Shown here one piece after another: positions 49,865-63,672 of a stretch of 64,000 nt of DNA. This DNA is from Mycobacterium sp. BK086 (GTDB lineage Bacteria > Actinomycetota > Actinomycetes > Mycobacteriales > Mycobacteriaceae): positions 434,001 to 498,000 of the forward strand of contig SNWL01000006.1 of NCBI GenBank assembly GCA_004362315.1. Reading direction: 5' to 3'. Both the position numbers and the translations under genes were made by a program. Positions within the stretch are counted from its first letter, which is position 1. Every line of letters begins with the position of its first letter. Below the pieces are notes generated by a model. The model made no database searches. It was not told the DNA's origin and was given only the letters and a program-made list of their open reading frames with translations.

Positions 49865-50901
49865 TGCGGCGTGCACCTACCCGTGGGCTGCTGAGTGATC
49901 TTCACGGTGCGGACTGGGCCACCGGGCTGCAGGCCGTTGAGCTTCAGGTTGATGTCGCACAGATAGAAGTTGAAGAAGTCGCCGTAGATACCGCCGGCGC
50001 GGCCGATCATCTTGACCGCCTCCGGCAGCTTCGTCAGCAGATCGTCAAGCCGGTCCTGACCGTCGGCCAGCGGCTGCTGGATGGTCTCCAGCTTGCCGAT
50101 CGTGTCCTTGAGCTGCGGGCGGTCGTCGGCCAGCAGGTCACCGACAGTGCCTGCGGCACTGCTGATGTCGGCGATGGACTGGGCCAGCGGATCCTGCCGA
50201 TCCTTCAGACCGGTGATCAGGATCTCGAGGTTGTTGACCGTCTGGTCGAAGTCCTTCTCGTGCTTGACCGTGGTGTCGAGCACCGTGTTCAGGTTGGTGA
50301 TCACATCACCGATCGCCTGGTCGCGGTCGGCCAGCGCGGACGTCAGCTGCGAGGTCTGATCCAGGATGTCGTTGATGGTGCCGCCCTGCCCCTGGAACAC
50401 CGTGATCAGCGACGAGGCAATGGTGTTGACCTTCTGCGGGTCCAACGACTTGAACAGAGGCTTGAAGCCGCCGATGAGCGCGTCGAGGTCCAGCGCGGGC
50501 TGGGTGCGCGACATCGGGATGAAGCCGTTCGCGGGCAGAATCCGGTCTGCGCCTTCGCCGGTGCCACGATCGAGGTTGACGTAGCGGTTGCCGATCAGGT
50601 CCTGGTAGCGGATCTGGGCAGTGGTCGACTGGTACAGCGGCAGGGTCCGGTCGACGTTGAGCGTCACCTGAACACGGTCGCCGTTGCCGATGAGCTTGAT
50701 GTCGGAGACCTTGCCGACCTCGACACCACCAGCACGGACGAACTGACCGTCACGCAAACCGCTGGCATTGCTGAATTCCGCTGTGTACGCGGTCGTTCGG
50801 TCGAAACGGAACTGCCCGAACACGATGATGATGATCGCCGTGAAGAGCAGGAGCACCAAGGAGAAGGCTCCGAGTTTGACTGCTGTGCCGGTGATTTTCA
50901 T
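49861..50901 (-). CDS. mce1B: Mce1B subunit
   Basis: A 346-residue protein with an N-terminal membrane anchor (KLGAFSLVLLLFTAIIIIVFG), MCE domain (AYTAEFSNASGLRDGQFVRAGGVEVGKVSDIKL) and helical region, and no Pro-rich tail, as usual for subunit B. It starts within the mce1A stop codon (ATGA overlap). Length agrees with Rv0170. Confidence 0.95.
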   Translation of the reverse strand: MKITGTAVKLGAFSLVLLLFTAIIIIVFGQFRFDRTTAYTAEFSNASGLRDGQFVRAGGVEVGKVSDIKLIGNGDRVQVTLNVDRTLPLYQSTTAQIRYQDLIGNRYVNLDRGTGEGADRILPANGFIPMSRTQPALDLDALIGGFKPLFKSLDPQKVNTIASSLITVFQGQGGTINDILDQTSQLTSALADRDQAIGDVITNLNTVLDTTVKHEKDFDQTVNNLEILITGLKDRQDPLAQSIADISSAAGTVGDLLADDRPQLKDTIGKLETIQQPLADGQDRLDDLLTKLPEAVKMIGRAGGIYGDFFNFYLCDINLKLNGLQPGGPVRTVKITQQPTGRCTPQ

Positions 50902-52109
50902 GGGTTGATCGTGTTCTCCCCGACTTGGCGTCCCCAGACGTACTCGGTCAGGATCGGCTGGCCGAGCTCGAAGTGGTTGTACGGCGCGAGCGAGGCACCG
51001 TCGTCGACCACGAGGTGCGGTGCCGGCCAGAAGTTACGGTCGATCTTCTGCCAGCAGCCGGGTGCACCGCCGGGGCCACCATGCCCGTTGATCCTGGGCA
51101 GGTTGTCCGGGTAGACGTAAGGGTTAGGGGCACCGAGGAATTCGGTGACGGTGTCCAGCGAATAGCCGTTGCCGCCGAACGCATCGAGCGCCGGTTGCAG
51201 AGCCTCGGCCTCACCCTTGATCTGGCAGTACAGCTGCGGGCTGTAGGTGTCCAGGAGTTTGGCGGTGGGGATCAGGTCGGCCTGGCCACGCACGAAGTAG
51301 GGGCCGCCGCGCTCGAAGATGTCGGCACCGGTATTGCCGAACCCGGTCGACGCCAACAAAGCAGCGTCGAGATCCTTCTGCTGCTCATTGAGCGTGCGCG
51401 CGGTGGTCACCGCGTGATCGAGGAAGTCCCATAGATCAGGGCTGGCCTTGGTGTACACATCGGCCAGCTTCGAAAGCTGCTGAATATTGGTACGGATCTG
51501 CGGCATCTGCGGATTGACGTCATCGAGCACCGCATTGCCGTTGACGATCGACTGCCCGAACTTGGTCCCCAGACCATCCAACGCCTCGGCCGCCGCCGAC
51601 AACGTCAGATTCAGCTTGACCGGATCCACCTTCTCCGAGATCGACGTCAACGTCTCGAACAACGTATTGAACTCGGTCGTGACCCCGGACGACTGGATCA
51701 CGTCCGCACTCGAAATCCTGGCCTTGGCCGGATCTTTCGGGCTGGTGAACGAGACGTACTTGTTGCCGAACACGGTGCTGGCCTTGACCTGAGCGTCCAC
51801 GTTGGCGGGGATCAGCGAGATGTAGCGCGGGGCGACCTCGAGGGTGAGTTCGGCGACCGACTTGCCGTCGCGGTTGACCGAGGCGACATTGCTGACGCGG
51901 CCGATCTCCACCCCGTTGTAGGTCACCTTCGACCCGGGATCCATCACCAGGCCCGCGCGGTCGGAGACCATGGTGAGCTTCGTCTTCGGCGTCAGGTCCC
52001 CACGGAACTGGAGGTAGACCAGTGCCACCAGGACGACGGCAAGCACCAGGAAGACCACACCCGCCAACTTGAGTGGCGGGCGCCGGGAAGAGTTCAACGG
52101 CTGGGTCAT
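50898..52109 (-). CDS. mce1A: Mce1A subunit
   Basis: A 403-residue protein starting MTQPLNSSRRPPLKLAGVV, 4 nt after the yrbE1B stop. It has a TM anchor (about 14-36), MCE domain (KTKLTMVSDRAGLVMDPGSKVTYNGVEIGRVSNVAS) and the helical region VNPQMPQIRTNIQQLSKLADVYTKASPDLWDFLD. The frame's longer N-terminal extension is antisense-shadow sequence inside yrbE1B. It ends GRQVGENTINP, about 50 residues shorter than the 454 I recall for M. tuberculosis Mce1A, so the C-terminal extension appears absent. Confidence 0.94.
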   Translation of the reverse strand: MTQPLNSSRRPPLKLAGVVFLVLAVVLVALVYLQFRGDLTPKTKLTMVSDRAGLVMDPGSKVTYNGVEIGRVSNVASVNRDGKSVAELTLEVAPRYISLIPANVDAQVKASTVFGNKYVSFTSPKDPAKARISSADVIQSSGVTTEFNTLFETLTSISEKVDPVKLNLTLSAAAEALDGLGTKFGQSIVNGNAVLDDVNPQMPQIRTNIQQLSKLADVYTKASPDLWDFLDHAVTTARTLNEQQKDLDAALLASTGFGNTGADIFERGGPYFVRGQADLIPTAKLLDTYSPQLYCQIKGEAEALQPALDAFGGNGYSLDTVTEFLGAPNPYVYPDNLPRINGHGGPGGAPGCWQKIDRNFWPAPHLVVDDGASLAPYNHFELGQPILTEYVWGRQVGENTINP

Positions 52110-52113
52110 ACCG

Positions 52114-52983
52114 CTACACCGTGAGGTTGAAGTTCGGGTCGGTGCCGTACAGCGCCAACGAGGCCAACAGAACAACCGTCGCGACGGCGACCAGAGACGC
52201 GCGCATCGAGATCCCGACGGCCTCACCAACACCCACCGGACCACCGCTGGCGTTGTAGCCGAAGTAGCAGTGATTGATCATCACGAACATCGCGATGATG
52301 ATCGCGACGACGAAGGACCAGAACACGTCGTCGGGGCGCAGGAACGTGCGGAAGTAGTGGTCGTAGGTGCCGGTCGACTGGCCGTACAGCACCGTGGTGG
52401 TGAGCTGAGCGGACAGGAACGACAGCAGCAGAGCCATCGCGTACAGCGGGATGATCACGACCATGCCGGCGAGGATGCGGGTCGACACCAGGTAGCTGAT
52501 GGACTTGATGCCCATCACCTCGAGCGCGTCGATCTCCTCGCTGATCCGCATGGCGCCCAGCTCGGCGGTGGCGCCTGCGCCGACCGTCGCGGCCAGTGCG
52601 TGCCCGGACACCAGGGGCGCGACGACGCGGACGTTGACCAGCGCCGCGACGAAGCCGGTGAAGGCCTCGACACCGATGTTGCCCAGTGAGGCATAGCCCT
52701 GGATCGCGATGAGCGAACCACCCGACAGGGTCACGAAGCCGACGATCGCGATCGTGCCGCCGATGACGGCCATCGCGCCGGTACCCATCCCGATCTCGGC
52801 GATCAGCCGCAGCGTCGCGCGGCGGTAGTAGCGCAACGCGTGCGGGATCTGGCCGACGGCGGTGACGGTGAACCAGGCCACGTCACCGACGCGGGTGACG
52901 AACCGGCCGGGAGCCGACGCCCACTGGGTCGCCCTGGAATACGCGCGGGGATACCGGCCCCGCAGAACTGTGGCTGTACTCAT
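52114..52983 (-). CDS. yrbE1B: YrbE1B permease
   Basis: A 289-residue integral membrane protein of the MlaE/YrbE family, the same length as Rv0168. Five TM helices with the ABC-coupling region AELGAMRISEEIDALEVMGIKSISYLVSTRILAG are present. The ATG at 52983 follows the yrbE1A stop by one base. With YrbE1A it forms the permease core; the ATPase (Mkl/MceG) is encoded elsewhere. Confidence 0.95.
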   Translation of the reverse strand: MSTATVLRGRYPRAYSRATQWASAPGRFVTRVGDVAWFTVTAVGQIPHALRYYRRATLRLIAEIGMGTGAMAVIGGTIAIVGFVTLSGGSLIAIQGYASLGNIGVEAFTGFVAALVNVRVVAPLVSGHALAATVGAGATAELGAMRISEEIDALEVMGIKSISYLVSTRILAGMVVIIPLYAMALLLSFLSAQLTTTVLYGQSTGTYDHYFRTFLRPDDVFWSFVVAIIIAMFVMINHCYFGYNASGGPVGVGEAVGISMRASLVAVATVVLLASLALYGTDPNFNLTV

Positions 52984-52984
52984 G

Positions 52985-53785
52985 TCAGTGCCCCGTTCCG
53001 AAGCGAACACCGATCGTCGTGAGGACCACGTTGACGGCGAACAATGCGACCACGGAAAGCACGAGCGTTTCGTTCACCGCCGTACCAAGGCCTTTGGAGC
53101 CGCCGGACACGGTCAGCCCGCGGTAGCAGCCGACCAGGCCGGCGATCAGTCCGAAGGTGAGAGCCTTGACGATCGAGATGATGACCTCGGGAAGTCCGGT
53201 GATCAGCGTGAGGGTGGAGACGTAGGCGCCGGCGGAGATGTTCTGCATGTACACGCCGAAGATGAATCCGCCGACCAGGCCGACGGTGATGACCGCGCCG
53301 TTGAGTAGGACGGCGACGAACGTCGAGGCGACCACGCGGGGCAGCACGAGACGGTGGATCGGATCGATGCCCAGCACCTCGAGGGCGTCGATCTCCTCAC
53401 GAATCGTGCGCGCGCCGAGGTCGGCACAGATGGCCGTCGACCCGGCGCCGGCGACCACCAGCACGGTCACGATCGGACCGAGCTGCGTCACCGCGGCCAG
53501 CGCGGCACCCGCCCCGGAGACGTCGGCGGCGCCGAACTCCACGAGCAGGATGTTGATGGTGAAGATGATCAGGATCGTGTTCGGGACCGCGACGGCGATC
53601 GTCGGCAGGAACGTCACACGGAACTGAAACCAGCCCTGAAGGATGAACTCTCGCCACTCGAACGGCCACTTCGTGGTGGCCTTCGCGGTGAGTACGCACA
53701 TGCGGAAGAAGCCGCCGATGGCGGTGAGCGCGGGACGGACCTTGTCCGATACGTAGTCGCCAACGCCCGTCGTCGTCGCCGTCAC
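52985..53785 (-). CDS. yrbE1A: YrbE1A permease
   Basis: A 266-residue MlaE/YrbE-family permease. The coupling segment is DLGARTIREEIDALEVLGIDPIHRLVLPRV and the C-terminal block GLTVSGGSKGLGTAVNETLVLSVVALFAVNVVLTTIGVRFGTG. Two in-frame GTG codons, 53797 and 53785, are possible; 53785 gives an N-terminus (TATTTGVGDYV) that lines up with the M. tuberculosis protein as I recall it. It is 230 nt downstream of fadD5, a gap large enough for an internal promoter. Confidence 0.94.
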   Translation of the reverse strand: MTATTTGVGDYVSDKVRPALTAIGGFFRMCVLTAKATTKWPFEWREFILQGWFQFRVTFLPTIAVAVPNTILIIFTINILLVEFGAADVSGAGAALAAVTQLGPIVTVLVVAGAGSTAICADLGARTIREEIDALEVLGIDPIHRLVLPRVVASTFVAVLLNGAVITVGLVGGFIFGVYMQNISAGAYVSTLTLITGLPEVIISIVKALTFGLIAGLVGCYRGLTVSGGSKGLGTAVNETLVLSVVALFAVNVVLTTIGVRFGTGH

Positions 53786-54015
53786 CTGGACACCCACATG
53801 ACGGAACCACGTCGGTCGTGGCTGGGCGGCAATCCGTCTGGCACATACCCTCCTTGCCCCGACCCGCAGTGAGTGAGTGTCGTCTCCCTACTAACGAGTA
53901 GTAAGGCGGACCACAGGAATGTACCCGATCGCAAAGGGCCCGTGCACCGCATCTGCACTATTGACCCTCCCTCGTTATCCAGCGAAATTTGTCGCCCTGG
54001 TAAGTGGTTCGCGCG

Positions 54016-59557: not shown

Positions 59558-62500
59558 CTAATTCGTCGGAATGCTGTAACCGTACGAATTGATCGGGGTG
59601 ATCTGCACATTGCCGGAGGCAGACACCGTCAACTTGAACACCATCCAGTAGGTCCCTCCGCTCACGCCGTCGCCGATGTAGGCGGCGTGAACTTGCGCAT
59701 CGTTGGTGTAAACCTGCACGGTCACACCAGATGTCGCGAGCGCGGTCGACTCGCTCGAGCCCCTGTTCGAGTAATCGTGGACGTAGAAGTAGTAATCACC
59801 CGCGGTCGGGATACGAATCGTTGTCGCCTCGGGTCCGTATGACGTGGTGTCGTCGTAGTCCAGATCAGCGACCAGTGAGTCGGCAGAGTAGTAGGTCTTG
59901 CCGCCGTACCACGTGTGGAAACGCGAACCGTCCTGTGTGACAGCCGGTCCGGTCAGATGCGAGTCCAGATCGCTCGGTGTCTGTCCCCAGCGCAGCACGA
60001 TGCGAACCTGAGCGTTGTCGTAGATCCCGACGGAATCAAATGCGTCAACGACTGCCTGCACCTGGTCCTGGCTGAAGCCGAGGGCTTGAGAACTACTGAT
60101 GATCGCAGCGCGGGCATCGACGAATTTTGCGGTCGAACTGAGCCTGAACATCGAGTTGTAGTAAACGTGTGCCCAGGTTTCACTGGTGATCGCGGCGGTT
60201 CGCGGATCGGTCATCATCGTGTACGCGGCCAAGTTGAAGATGCCGCTGTTCGTGTGCACGCCCCCGTAGTCGCATTCCCTGGTGGTGCAGCCAGGGTTGT
60301 CCAGATCGGCGTAGTTTTCGGGCTGCCCGTAGAGCGAGGGGTCAGAAAGCGATCGACGGAAGATTCCGGTGGTGTCGTTCGGTACGTCCTCGCCGAAAAC
60401 CCAACGTCCGTCGCCCACTTTGCCTTCGATGATGCTGCCCATGATGTCGGCGTACGACTCGTTGAGCGCACCTGACTCGCCGGCATAGACCAATCCGACA
60501 TTCCCGCCGACGATTTTCGAGATGACCGCATGGGTGAACTCGTGGCCGACGATGTCCAGGGCGTATTCCGATCGCATGCCGAAGGCGAATTGCTGCGCGG
60601 TCCCACTCCAAAAGGCATTTGCCCATGGGCCGTTCACCAGAGTGATCACAATTCCTGTGTTTTGGCCGTCATAGGAGGCTCTGCCGAGAACGTTCGCGTA
60701 GAAGTTGTAGACCCTCGACATATTGTTGTATGCGATCGACGTGGAGTCGTTCAAGTTCACGCTCACCGCGTGGCCGGGCAACTCGGCAGGCCCGGTGTGT
60801 CCCGATGGATCGGCGCTGGTTCCGGTGACATTCATGTAGATCACGCCAGAACTCACATCCGCGTCAGCGATGTTCGAAACCCCGATCAGCACAGTTCCGG
60901 CATTGGCGCCGTTGGCATACACGTAATACGTGCTGCTGATGTAGGGCAGATCCGCCGCGGGACTGGTCGTGCTGGCATTGACTTGCCAAGCCAGCGATGG
61001 CGAAACAGCGGCGTCGAGAGCGTAGACGACAAGCTCGCCGCTGACCGTCACGCTCGCAAGGATCGTTGCTTGATCCTCGGGTGACAATTGATCGCCGACG
61101 CTGCCCAACAGCGCCGCCTGAACAACCGCGACTGCCTGCTCCAGGCCGATATCAGCCGTCGTGTTTACGTTCTGAATACCCTTGACGTAGTAGCTGAATA
61201 AGCTCGTGGCAGTACCGGCACCATCGGTCACGAGAATTACCTGACTGCCCACTACCCGCACACCGTTGACCTCTTGGGACAGCCGGTAGAAGGTCTCGTC
61301 AACACCGGCCCCAGTCGACTGCGCCACGATGTTCACTGCCGTTGCAAACGCTCCGTCCGCGCCAAGCACCGCACCCAATTTGTTGATCAGGGCGGCCGCA
61401 TCGGCATTGCTTGCCACGGTGTCATCACTGAACGTCCCGTCGATGACCCGGATCGTCCCGTCGTTGTTCTCCGACACAGCCACAACGTCTTGCGCGACAA
61501 GCCCTTCCAAGTCGGCAAGGGTCAGGACGCCGTCGTCGTCCGGATGAGTGCCATCACCGGCTGGTGTCACGATGATGTTCACAGTCCCAGTGGCGGTGCC
61601 GCCCTGACCGTCGTCGACGGTATAGGTGAAGGTGTCGCCGCCGACGTAGTCGGCGGCCGGCGTGTAGGTCACGGAACCGCCTGACACTGCGGCCGTGCCG
61701 TGAGCAGGTGCTGTGACCCCCGTCAATGCCAGTGTGTCGCCATCGACATCACTGTCGTTGTCCAACACCGCGATCACTGCCACCGCGTCCGCGGCGACGA
61801 CGGCCGAATCGCCAACGAGATGCGGCACGTCGTTGACCGCCGCCACGACAATTGTGACAACGGCGGGAGCGCTGGTCGCAGAACCATCCGTCACCGTGTA
61901 TGTAAATGAGTCTGCGCCAAAATAATTCGCATTGGGAACGTACGACCAACTGTCACCGGTGAGCGTCACCACGCCGTGAGACGCCGGCGCGCCGACCGCA
62001 TACGTCAGCGATGCGGAATCAATATCCGAGCCCGCCAATGTGCCCGTGATCGTGCTGTCCTCAGCCCCTGCGCCAGTCAACCCCTCGGCGGCGACCGGTG
62101 CGTCGTTGACTGCAGCCACGGTCACCGCGACAGTGCCCGTCGCCGTACCGCCATGTCCGTCAGAGAGGGTGTAGGTGAAGGTGTCTGCGCCGTTGTAGTC
62201 CGCGTCAGGGGTGTAGGTGACGGAGCCCCCTGCCAGCACCGCCGAGCCATGCGCCGGTGTCGAGACACCCGTCACGGTCAGCACATCTCCGTCGACATCG
62301 GAGTCATTGCCTGTCAACGTGACCACGGGGACCGAAACCGGTGTGTCCTCAGCGGTACTCGCCGCATCAGCCACCGCAGCCGGTGCGTCGTTGACCGCAG
62401 TGACGGTCACCGCAACGGTGCCCGTCGCCGTCCCGCCATGGCCGTCAGAAACCGTATAGGTGAAGCTGTCCGCCCCGGCGAAATCAGCGTTCGGCGTATA

Positions 62501-63478
62501 CGTGACCGTGGTGCCCGCCAACACCGCCGTACCATGGGCCGCCGTCGAGACACCTGTCACGGTCAGCACATCGCCGTTGGCATCGGAATCATTGCCCACC
62601 AAGTCCGCAGTGGTCACCGAAACCGCCGTGTCCTCAATGGTGGTGGTGCCGTCATCGACCGTGATCGGCGATTGGTTGCGCCGGTGGATCACGCCGATCG
62701 CAGTCAAGAAGTTGGTGATCGCGTTGCTGATGGCGGTGAACACCGAGTTGATCAGCGTGCTGACGCTGGAGATGAAAGACTCCAGCGGGTTGGCCGCCGC
62801 CAGCGGAGTAGCCAACGCCGACAACGTCTTTGCCACCCCACTGGCGGTCAGCGGGTCGGCCTCGCCGGGCCCCGGTTGCGCCGCCCGGTGTGCGCTCGTG
62901 ACGACCTGCCGAATGCGGCCGCCGCCGAATTCCCTTCGCGTACCCGCCAACAGCACCGACTCCGCCGGCGAAGTCGGCGGATCGCCGACCGGTGAACCGG
63001 CAGCCGACACTGCCGCCTGCATGCCGCCGACCACGCGGGCGTTCGACAGCGCAGCGACGGCCGCAGGGGCCGGCGAATCAATACCCGCGTGCCCGGGGGC
63101 CTCGTCGCGCGGCGGCGCGTGATCGTCGTCGACGACCGAGGGTCCCGACGAGCCGTCCGATCGCGCAGAACTGTCCCCTCGACCGTGACGCCGTGGCGTC
63201 TCGCCCTTACCCGGCTTCTCGGCCCTGTCGTCGGCCGGGCCGCGTGCCGTGCGAGCAGGTGACCGCTTGCTGGCCCCTGCCGCGGCCTGACCCGACGACG
63301 TCCCCCGGCCCGAATGGTCAGAACTGGCCGAAGATGAGTCCGCTGAGTCGGCATAAGCCACACCACAGGCCAGCGAGGCGCTCAGGCCGACCCCCACCCC
63401 CAGTGCTACCGCCAGCGCGCCGATGCGCCCGATCGACTTCTCGGAGCACAGCGTCTTGCCGGTGAGAATTGAGTACAT
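59558..63478 (-). CDS. Giant secreted M4 (thermolysin-like) metalloprotease with cadherin-like repeats
   Basis: A 1306-residue exported protein. Residues 1-44 are an extended signal (IGRIGALAVALGVGVGLSASLACGVAYADS). Residues 45-265 are a Ser/Arg/Gly-rich, then Ala-rich, low-complexity linker. Residues ~270-637 hold four cadherin/VCBS-like repeats with AVNDAP junctions and DxDxDGD calcium-type motifs. A dockerin-like DDDGVLTLADLEG and an FTP/PepSY-type propeptide follow (~650-840). The catalytic M4 domain has HEFTH (H979, E980, H983), third ligand E1007 in GALNESYAD and transition-state His H1075 in GGVHTNSGI. C-terminal ~1155-1300 is a YfaP/DUF2135-like beta domain (VRIVLRWGQTPSDLDSHLTGP). 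All catalytic residues are intact, so it should be active. Transcribed divergently from a LuxR-type ATPase gene. Confidence 0.9.
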   Translation of the reverse strand: MYSILTGKTLCSEKSIGRIGALAVALGVGVGLSASLACGVAYADSADSSSASSDHSGRGTSSGQAAAGASKRSPARTARGPADDRAEKPGKGETPRRHGRGDSSARSDGSSGPSVVDDDHAPPRDEAPGHAGIDSPAPAAVAALSNARVVGGMQAAVSAAGSPVGDPPTSPAESVLLAGTRREFGGGRIRQVVTSAHRAAQPGPGEADPLTASGVAKTLSALATPLAAANPLESFISSVSTLINSVFTAISNAITNFLTAIGVIHRRNQSPITVDDGTTTIEDTAVSVTTADLVGNDSDANGDVLTVTGVSTAAHGTAVLAGTTVTYTPNADFAGADSFTYTVSDGHGGTATGTVAVTVTAVNDAPAAVADAASTAEDTPVSVPVVTLTGNDSDVDGDVLTVTGVSTPAHGSAVLAGGSVTYTPDADYNGADTFTYTLSDGHGGTATGTVAVTVAAVNDAPVAAEGLTGAGAEDSTITGTLAGSDIDSASLTYAVGAPASHGVVTLTGDSWSYVPNANYFGADSFTYTVTDGSATSAPAVVTIVVAAVNDVPHLVGDSAVVAADAVAVIAVLDNDSDVDGDTLALTGVTAPAHGTAAVSGGSVTYTPAADYVGGDTFTYTVDDGQGGTATGTVNIIVTPAGDGTHPDDDGVLTLADLEGLVAQDVVAVSENNDGTIRVIDGTFSDDTVASNADAAALINKLGAVLGADGAFATAVNIVAQSTGAGVDETFYRLSQEVNGVRVVGSQVILVTDGAGTATSLFSYYVKGIQNVNTTADIGLEQAVAVVQAALLGSVGDQLSPEDQATILASVTVSGELVVYALDAAVSPSLAWQVNASTTSPAADLPYISSTYYVYANGANAGTVLIGVSNIADADVSSGVIYMNVTGTSADPSGHTGPAELPGHAVSVNLNDSTSIAYNNMSRVYNFYANVLGRASYDGQNTGIVITLVNGPWANAFWSGTAQQFAFGMRSEYALDIVGHEFTHAVISKIVGGNVGLVYAGESGALNESYADIMGSIIEGKVGDGRWVFGEDVPNDTTGIFRRSLSDPSLYGQPENYADLDNPGCTTRECDYGGVHTNSGIFNLAAYTMMTDPRTAAITSETWAHVYYNSMFRLSSTAKFVDARAAIISSSQALGFSQDQVQAVVDAFDSVGIYDNAQVRIVLRWGQTPSDLDSHLTGPAVTQDGSRFHTWYGGKTYYSADSLVADLDYDDTTSYGPEATTIRIPTAGDYYFYVHDYSNRGSSESTALATSGVTVQVYTNDAQVHAAYIGDGVSGGTYWMVFKLTVSASGNVQITPINSYGYSIPTN
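61568..62671 (-). repeat. Four tandem cadherin/VCBS-like ~90-residue repeats within the M4 protease gene
   Basis: Residues about 270-360, 366-455, 460-548 and 552-637 share the frame NDSDxDGDxLTVTGVSxxAHGxAxLxGxxVTYTPxADxxGADxFTYTVSDGHGGTATGTVxVTV. Repeats 1 and 2 are closest, and repeat 3 is the most diverged. The Asp clusters suggest Ca2+-stiffened spacers. Confidence 0.85.
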
Positions 63479-63672
63479 GATGCGGCCTCCCCGTCTACCC
63501 GGAACATCCGGTCCCCGCGCGAAGATTAAGGAGCCGGGATCGGGCGCGGATACCGGGATTTCCCTGGTATTCAGCGGGGCGGCCCAAATATCGACGATGT
63601 CGTCAAAAAATGAGTAGCGTCCGCCCTCCAGGCGAGTAGTGATTGCTGGCGGTTACCTGCCAGGCGTCTGCC

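What the first reader, a model, noticed from the sequence alone, without database searches (positions are those of the whole stretch)
59558..63478. Giant M4 metalloprotease with cadherin-like spacer and YfaP-like cap in a mycobacterium
The protein combines an extended mycobacterial-type signal, ~220 residues of low-complexity wall-spanning linker, four cadherin/VCBS repeats, a propeptide, an intact thermolysin catalytic domain and a C-terminal YfaP/DUF2135-like module. M4 proteases are uncommon in mycobacteria, and I know no described member with this order of domains. It looks like a surface-displayed or released protease held off the cell by calcium-stiffened repeats.
Basis: partly seen in the sequence, partly recalled or inferred. 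Interest (0 to 1): 0.8.

Follow-up and report, generated by a model that had tools for sequence, protein, structure and literature searches.

The report
Mycobacterial thermolysin on rod, with cap
This mycobacterium encodes a large, apparently exported protein-cutting enzyme made of a mycobacterium-specific export tail, an Ig-type rod and a protease-plus-cap unit that also occurs in anaerobic Clostridia; its active site looks intact, but nothing has been tested at the bench.

Summary
The ORF is real: 1306 aa, 59558-63478 minus, ATG with a GGAGG site. VCBS is not supported.

M4 is not rare in the genus: 94 of 396 genomes, with 63 long frames in 59 genomes. The cap is rare: 10 of 396 genomes, on long M4 frames in 4. 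The propeptide-M4-cap unit is about equally close to another mycobacterium (44%) and to Clostridia (42%), where it follows SLH, CBM2 or Big_2 domains.

The unexpected part is the N-terminus. Its GRxGALAVALGxG signal recurs in 23 other ORFs of this genome (E<1e-3), in 235 of 396 genus genomes, and in none of the 59 other genera sampled in the order. Varied enzymes follow it, including a PE-PPE domain and, on weaker matches, PE-PGRS_C and GH64.

Most likely a tethered zymogen that releases M4-cap. Caution: it lacks 20-50 residues of the M4 N-lobe, as does one other mycobacterial cap protein.

The parts
63486..63490 (-). GGAGG ribosome-binding site, 7 nt before the ATG
   Evidence: read from sequence
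63350..63478 (-). residues 1-43: signal with the mycobacterium-specific IGRIGALAVALGVG core, likely cleavage AYA/DS
   Evidence: alignment A1 with 11 other N-termini; the own-genome match E 2.1e-15 is partly by construction, as this sequence is a row of A1; cleavage site by eye
62834..63349 (-). residues 44-215: low-complexity A/S/G/P/R linker
   Evidence: composition; no Pfam or NCBIfam match up to E 10 for residues 1-270
62675..62833 (-). residues 216-268: hydrophobic/amphipathic stretch before the rod
   Evidence: sequence; role inferred
62396..62674 (-). repeat 1 (269-361), Big_9/cadherin-like/tandem-95, NDSDANGD
62117..62395 (-). repeat 2 (362-454), Big_9, NDSDVDGD
61832..62116 (-). repeat 3 (455-549), Big_9, without the NDSDxxGD motif
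61559..61831 (-). repeat 4 (550-640), Big_9, NDSDVDGD
60842..61540 (-). residues 647-879: thermolysin-type propeptide
   Evidence: family profile against 5a3y, E 1e-76; FTP sub-threshold
60023..60841 (-). residues 880-1152: M4 catalytic domain with shortened N-lobe; HEFTH 979-983, Glu1007, His1075
60530..60544 (-). HEFTH zinc motif, residues 979-983
59561..60022 (-). residues 1153-1306: YfaP/DUF2135-like C-terminal cap
   Evidence: controls

Best explanation
An exported zymogen. SHOWN by sequence: the order signal, A/S/P-rich linker, four Ig/cadherin-type repeats, thermolysin-type propeptide, M4 domain with catalytic residues in place, YfaP-like cap. INFERRED: the Sec pathway exports it through the mycobacterium-specific signal; linker and rod hold the inactive pro-enzyme in or beyond the envelope; because the rod precedes the propeptide, maturation frees the M4-cap unit, which digests extracellular or wall-associated protein, with the cap aiding substrate or surface binding. 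The propeptide-M4-cap unit is modular: mycobacteria put it on their own export tail and rod, Clostridia on SLH, CBM2 or Big_2 modules.
For: Domain profiles. Residues matching thermolysin's by motif (thermolysin roles and numbering recalled): His979, Glu980, His983, Glu1007, Tyr998, Asp1070, His1075, Asn954, Arg1042. 23 other ORFs of this genome match the signal profile at E<1e-3. The propeptide-M4-cap unit recurs whole in mycobacterial L088 (44% over 713 columns, 503 bits) and Clostridiales L157 (42% over 719, 479 bits); 13 anaerobe contigs match M4-cap at 42-53% (best segment) over about 350-415 residues, and 5 of 6 such proteins scanned have SLH, CBM2 or Big_2 N-termini. YfaP match 95.6% against controls of 0.3% and 0.1%.
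Against: Around the propeptide/M4 junction the window protein has 93 residues where 31 aligned relatives have 113-143, and Peptidase_M4 matches only from profile position 68: canonical processing, or activity, may be lost. Two of five thermolysin Ca1/Ca2 ligands (recalled: D185, E187) read as Arg1025 and Val1027 (from positions). No structure could be predicted. No full-length relative above about 53% was met, so selection could not be tested. No data on secretion or activity.
Confidence: 0.55

Rival explanations
1. Permanently tethered surface protease: the shortened propeptide/M4 junction is not cut (or the parts stay bound), so the enzyme works from the rod tip.
For: 20-50 residues fewer than 31 relatives just where thermolysin-type enzymes are matured. 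Clostridial homologues carry surface (SLH) or polysaccharide-binding (CBM2) modules on the same N-terminal side.
Against: M4 propeptides normally block the active site until cut (general knowledge); the propeptide is retained and recognisable.
Confidence: 0.25
2. Proteolytically dead or crippled M4 kept as an adhesin or receptor, because the missing N-lobe hairpin destabilises the fold.
For: Shortest of 32 aligned proteins at the N-lobe; two calcium ligands changed.
Against: Zinc ligands and transition-state residues retained; the His231 environment GGVHTNSGI is closer to thermolysin than in the other three mycobacterial cap-bearing proteins. A second, divergent cap protein (L089) has an equally short N-lobe (57 against 62 residues; the next shortest of 66 measured is 82), which speaks for a variant rather than decay; I lowered this rival from 0.15 to 0.12 for that.
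Confidence: 0.12
3. Very recent horizontal import of an anaerobe propeptide-M4-cap gene fused to a native export tail, not yet functional.
For: Residues 1-268 are 70.0% GC against 59% for pro-M4 and cap; in one tree of 42 chosen rows the window row falls outside a 20-row mycobacterial clade with a Clostridiales protein nearest by path, 1.46, a mycobacterial one next, 1.53.
Against: One clade of all 21 mycobacterial rows is not rejected (AU 0.519); a mycobacterial relative scores a little higher than the Clostridiales one (503 against 479 bits), for which I lowered this rival from 0.05 to 0.04; identity to any anaerobe is about 50% at most, so not recent; distal GC3 under 0.74 also occurs in 3 of 30 other proteins with this type of signal.
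Confidence: 0.04

Closest known systems
Thermolysin / M4 metallopeptidase (PDB 5a3y, 1kei)
   Same: Propeptide, HExxH...E, catalytic Tyr and His; A3 profile E 1e-76
   Different: N-terminal signal/linker/rod, C-terminal cap, shortened N-lobe, two Ca ligands changed
   Same: Propeptide, M4, cap; 43-50% in A2; L089 shares the short N-lobe
   Different: Other modules ahead of the propeptide; L088 and L094 have a full N-lobe by eye
Anaerobe M4-cap proteins (L157, L159, L160, L163, L164, L165; Clostridia, one labelled Muribaculum)
   Same: Propeptide / M4 / cap at 28-36 / 42-47 / 44-54%
   Different: SLH, CBM2 or Big_2 N-termini in 5, none recognised in L160; Peptidase_M4 matched from profile 4-24
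Mycobacterial long M4 ORFs without cap (e.g. M. frederiksbergense L176, M. bacteremicum L178)
   Same: Signal, Ig repeats, propeptide, M4
   Different: End at M4: 51 of 57 extracted long ORFs stop 168-184 aa after HExxH
E. coli YfaP (DUF2135)
   Same: 80 columns, 39% identity, 95.6%
   Different: No Pfam match for the cap; YfaP's own function is not known to me
PecA, surface aspartic protease of M. marinum (PMC6819658; abstract, outline and passages seen)
   Same: Exported mycobacterial surface protease; a PE-PGRS_C domain follows a weak match to this signal in L153 (signal E 0.011; domain)
   Different: Aspartic protease; a type VII substrate with a PE domain (ESX-5 route recalled)

Membership tests
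M4 peptidase (thermolysin) | HExxH with downstream Glu ligand, NExxxD | tested here: met
   HEFTH 979-983, E1007; M4_C E 5.6e-33
M4 peptidase (thermolysin) | Full N-terminal beta-lobe | tested here: not met
   PF01447 from profile 68 only; 93 aa against 113-143 in 31 relatives; also short in L089
M4 peptidase (thermolysin) | FTP/PepSY-type propeptide | tested here: met
   Family profile covers most of the propeptide of 5a3y; the window protein alone scores 19.2 bits for FTP against a cut-off of 21
M4 peptidase (thermolysin) | Zn-dependent proteolysis | not testable with these tools
   needs the bench
YfaP/DUF2135 | Pfam family match | tested here: not met
   no DUF2135 match listed at E up to 10
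YfaP/DUF2135 | Profile similarity to YfaP | tested here: met
   95.6%, E 1.2e-8; controls 0.3% and 0.1%
VCBS repeat | VCBS model match | tested here: not met
   not among the 7 Pfam families
Big_9 / bacterial cadherin-like / tandem-95 | Model above cut-off, repeated | tested here: met
   4 stretches each, 290 and 266.7 bits
LPXTG / lipoprotein anchoring | C-terminal LPXTG with hydrophobic tail, or lipobox | tested here: not met
   two loose LPxTG-like strings (514, 1223), none near the C-terminus with a hydrophobic tail; best hydrophobic windows are the signal and an interior stretch; Cys38 is not in a consensus lipobox (by eye)
ESX-5 PE/PPE substrate | PE or PPE N-terminal domain | tested here: not met
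   no PE/PPE model, nor for residues 1-270 up to E 10

The most novel reading that the evidence does not exclude
The GR(V/I)G(G/A)LAVALG(V/I)G signal plus A/S/T/P-rich linker is an undescribed, mycobacterium-specific extended export tail, a counterpart of Firmicutes YSIRK signals (recalled). It would deliver a swappable set of surface enzymes and rods (GH5, GH18, S15, esterases, DUF4185, a PE-PPE domain without PE/PPE N-terminus, M4-cap; on weaker matches GH64 and PE-PGRS_C) by a route parallel to ESX-5, with cassettes shared with Clostridia, such as M4-cap, grafted onto it.
Probability: 0.35. Interest if true: 0.8.

Novelty: new variant of a known kind. Interest (0 to 1): 0.5.

Why it matters
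If right, many mycobacteria display or release a substantial set of enzymes through one genus-specific N-terminal tail, including a catalytic domain known elsewhere in the genus on PE/PPE proteins. That makes 'how do mycobacteria place large enzymes across the mycomembrane without ESX or sortase' directly testable with a roughly 40-residue tag. The protease also shows one propeptide-M4-cap cassette carried by both Clostridia and mycobacteria on different N-terminal modules, and a natural M4 with a cut-down N-lobe.

Tried and rejected
VCBS as repeat identity: no model match. DUF2135 by Pfam: no match; tested instead by profile comparison with controls. LPXTG, lipobox and transmembrane anchoring: none found. 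A conserved junction motif before the first domain in the signal family: my pattern matched 0 of 30; a W...REI..FFN..P-like stretch is visible by eye in L089, L247 and L248. The three other mycobacterial cap proteins are absent from the 80 rows, so that list alone misleads. A short N-lobe unique to the window protein: wrong, L089 has it too. Clades by AU test: all cap-bearing rows rejected, 0.004; four mycobacterial cap rows 0.099, window plus anaerobe caps 0.104 and all mycobacterial rows 0.519, not rejected. So transfer and its direction stay unresolved. FastTree and IQ-TREE disagree on the window row's neighbours. Low GC as proof of import: weakened because 3 of 30 other signal-family proteins have distal GC3 under 0.74, and the family's first 150 residues average GC3 0.76 anyway. 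Papers: ten searches; in the rows listed (14 and 20 papers matched listed each) I saw no description of this protein or signal. Sequences are seldom printed in text, so this is weak. I read passages of PMC5101647 and passages, abstract and outline of PMC6819658; the rest only as listings.

Selections to know: A1 was made from 12 long-M4 N-termini, the window's included, so 12 of the 17 signal hits and the window's own hit are by construction. The 57 ORFs were picked by a zinc-site pattern, so 57 of 57 is by construction; the other 6 of 63 were looked at apart and keep HExxH and the Glu, with the Asn before it changed. A3 holds 31 of the 47 candidate stretches besides the window, and none of L088, L089, L094. 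could measure 66 of 131 ORFs (some are the same gene twice). The IQ-TREE rows were 42 chosen by hand. One search scored at most 36 candidates a genome and at most 18, so counts per genome are lower bounds. Of 36 own-genome signal hits I fetched 30 besides the window; the 5 weakest (E 0.11-0.89) were dropped. An earlier count said 9 of 30 had no Pfam family; recounting searches gives 7.
Full report
OBSERVATION. Pfam gives four Big_9 stretches (E 7.2e-88) with overlapping Cadherin_5 and Cadherin_4, Peptidase_M4_C (5.6e-33) and Peptidase_M4 (2.3e-13). NCBIfam calls the repeats tandem-95. The best PDB chain is thermolysin, E 1.5e-29. This is far beyond chance. That the genus is Mycobacterium follows from long-M4 genes of 'same genus' genomes that are identical at the C-terminal end to genes on named Mycobacterium/Mycolicibacterium contigs; species and habitat are not known to me.

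ACTIVE SITE. HEFTH lies at 979-983, the third zinc ligand is Glu1007, and Tyr998, Asp1070, His1075, Asn954 and Arg1042 match thermolysin positions by motif (thermolysin numbering recalled). Of the five double-calcium ligands, two read as Arg1025 and Val1027, so at most a single-calcium site is likely (inference).

PROPEPTIDE AND N-LOBE. A profile of 32 family members (A3) aligns with 5a3y_A (labelled thermolysin, 548 aa) over chain residues 80-547, E 1e-76. Between the end of the propeptide and the first catalytic-domain helix the window protein has 93 residues in the A3 slice, the 31 others 113-143. Peptidase_M4 matches it only from profile position 68, against 4-24 in six anaerobe proteins. 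A pattern-based measure over more ORFs (66 of 131 measurable) gives 62 residues for the window, 57 for L089 and 82 or more for the rest. So two mycobacterial cap proteins share the short lobe. The missing part is where thermolysin-type enzymes are normally cut, which is the main doubt about how, or whether, the enzyme matures.

CAP. The last about 154 residues have no relevant match in Pfam or NCBIfam up to E 10 and only chance-level PDB matches. Aligned with ten relatives (A4) they match E. coli YfaP, annotated DUF2135, at 95.6%, E 1.2e-8, over 80 columns; two neighbouring E. coli proteins give 0.3% and 0.1%. In the genus the cap occurs 11 times in 10 of 396 genomes: on long M4 frames in G000, G011, G200 and G373; on a 435-aa frame with a partial M4 in G140; a second time in this genome on a 620-aa frame with only sub-threshold cutinase and thioesterase matches; and on five other proteins whose N-termini all show a GRVGA-type signal by eye. 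In a sample of 296 genomes of the phylum 5 have it, two of them in this genus.

HOW COMMON. Peptidase_M4_C is found in 94 of 396 genus genomes: short frames (about 340-580 aa, plus a few fragments) and long ones (614-2950 aa), of which I count 63 in 59 genomes, the window's own included. I fetched all 63; 57 were extracted by a zinc-site pattern, and the other 6 also keep HExxH and the Glu. The long ORFs resemble the window protein in propeptide and M4 at 34-49% by BLASTP. Four carry the cap. 17 of 57 carry the A1 signal, 12 of them being rows of A1 itself, and 25 of 57 at least one repeat by a local profile. So the 'no known member' claim holds only for the complete order with cap.

RELATIVES ELSEWHERE. 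A scan of 84,980 species genomes with M4+cap (A2) found 280 relatives and kept 80. The first 13 rows, which cover most of M4 and cap, are anaerobes: Clostridiales 53% (residues 16-415), Family XIII, Lachnospiraceae, Oscillospiraceae, Butyrivibrio, one labelled Muribaculum. Rumen origin is stated in one of their titles (L162); gut origin of others is inferred from names. The three other mycobacterial cap proteins are not in that list, so it does not rank them. Compared directly over propeptide, M4 and cap, mycobacterial L088 gives 44% and 503 bits, Clostridiales L157 42% and 479 bits. The unit is thus about equally close to both. Of six anaerobe proteins scanned, two start with SLH, two with CBM2, one with Big_2 and one with nothing recognised; the Big_2 one and one CBM2 one also have a Listeria-Bacteroides repeat. 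The same protease-cap unit sits on different N-terminal modules.

TREES. FastTree on 135 M4 domains puts mycobacterial long M4s with the anaerobe proteins (81 tips, support 0.936), away from mycobacterial short M4s. IQ-TREE on 42 hand-chosen rows places the window row outside a 20-row mycobacterial clade (81/90), nearest by path to Clostridiales L157 (1.46) with mycobacterial L033 next (1.53). Holding all 21 mycobacterial rows together is not rejected (AU 0.519); the four mycobacterial cap rows together give 0.099, window plus anaerobe caps 0.104, and all cap-bearing rows together are rejected, 0.004. This suggests that the cap was gained or lost more than once; the direction of transfer is open.

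COMPOSITION. GC is 70.0% for residues 1-268, 64.5% for the repeats, 59.3% for propeptide+M4 and 59.1% for the cap; GC3 is 0.80, 0.73, 0.74 and 0.76 against 0.86-0.90 in four neighbours. Over 57 long M4s the mean M4 GC3 is 0.862, while the four cap-bearing ones have 0.757 (window), 0.689 (L088), 0.809 (L089) and 0.584 (L094). This fits a cassette from lower-GC bacteria on a native tail. It is not proof: 3 of 30 other signal-family proteins have distal GC3 under 0.74, and the family's first 150 residues average 69% GC with GC3 0.76.

THE EXPORT TAIL. Twelve N-termini of long M4s share an invariant GRxGALAxALGxG core. In this genome the profile finds 36 places at E up to 1, 24 at E<1e-3 including the window, which is a row of the profile. 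I fetched the 30 best besides the window. In 24 of 30 the motif lies within the first 60 codons of its frame (frames of 298-1255 codons), and residues 46-150 hold 10% Ala or more in 29 of 30, mostly with Ser, Thr and Pro; L142 is Gly-rich instead. Pfam finds a family in 23 of 30. Among the 23 at E<1e-3 these are GH5 with PGRS, GH18 with Calx-beta, S15 twice, Abhydrolase_3 three times, DUF4185 twice, a phosphoesterase, CBM60, fn3, Big_9 three times, PGRS and a PE-PPE domain, with 6 of 23 having none. Among the 7 weaker matches (E 0.003-0.015) are GH64, a lactonase-type propeller, Abhydrolase_3, Big_9 twice and a PE-PGRS_C domain, with 1 of 7 having none. No PE or PPE domain is reported in the PE-PPE or PE-PGRS_C proteins. 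In 200 genomes of the order the signal is found at E up to 1e-4 in 14, all in one genus of 60. In the genus it is in 235 of 396 at E up to 1e-6; 161 of 396 show none at that cut-off. A paper search for four spellings of the core found 0 papers. A lead only: an M. smegmatis putative lipase, MSMEG_0412, needs its N-terminal signal, predicted to be cut between A29 and D30, to reach the cell periphery (PMC5101647, passages); I did not see whether it has this core.

MECHANISM. Shown: domain order, residues, distribution. Inferred: export by Sec; the rod as spacer; a zymogen that frees M4-cap on maturation, because rod and propeptide lie on the same side of the cut; the cap as a binding module.

VERDICT.

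Noticed in passing
L141 (G000:C2:82900-87700): A PE-PPE hydrolase domain (E 1.1e-71) behind the GRxGGLAVALG signal (E 4.1e-6), with no PE or PPE domain reported.
   Followed up: partly
L153 (G000:C2:588000-592700): A PE-PGRS_C aspartyl-peptidase-like domain (E 1.8e-91) behind a weak variant of the signal (WLGAGAVALGIG, E 0.011), with no PE domain reported.
   Followed up: partly
L246:2070-3929 minus (G000:C2:1159593-1160024): Second YfaP-like cap in this genome, on a 620-aa frame with only sub-threshold cutinase/thioesterase matches and a WLRIGAVGFGLG variant N-terminus.
   Followed up: partly
L252 (G140:C1:1410500-1423000): Cap on a 435-aa frame with a partial M4 domain in which no HExxH was found in frame; looks like a decayed or fragmentary copy.
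   Followed up: no
L155: Clostridiales contig with the best M4-cap match, but the open frame ends just after M4 while tblastn continues into the cap.
   Followed up: no
L093: Mycobacterial long M4 with zinc motif kept, in which the catalytic His (thermolysin His231, recalled) could not be seen in the stretch printed.
   Followed up: no
L088: Cap-bearing mycobacterial M4 with a YVTN-type beta-propeller-like stretch, by eye, between linker and propeptide.
   Followed up: no
window 50898-53797 minus: Pair of YrbE-like permease genes next to an MCE-type gene, by eye.
   Followed up: no
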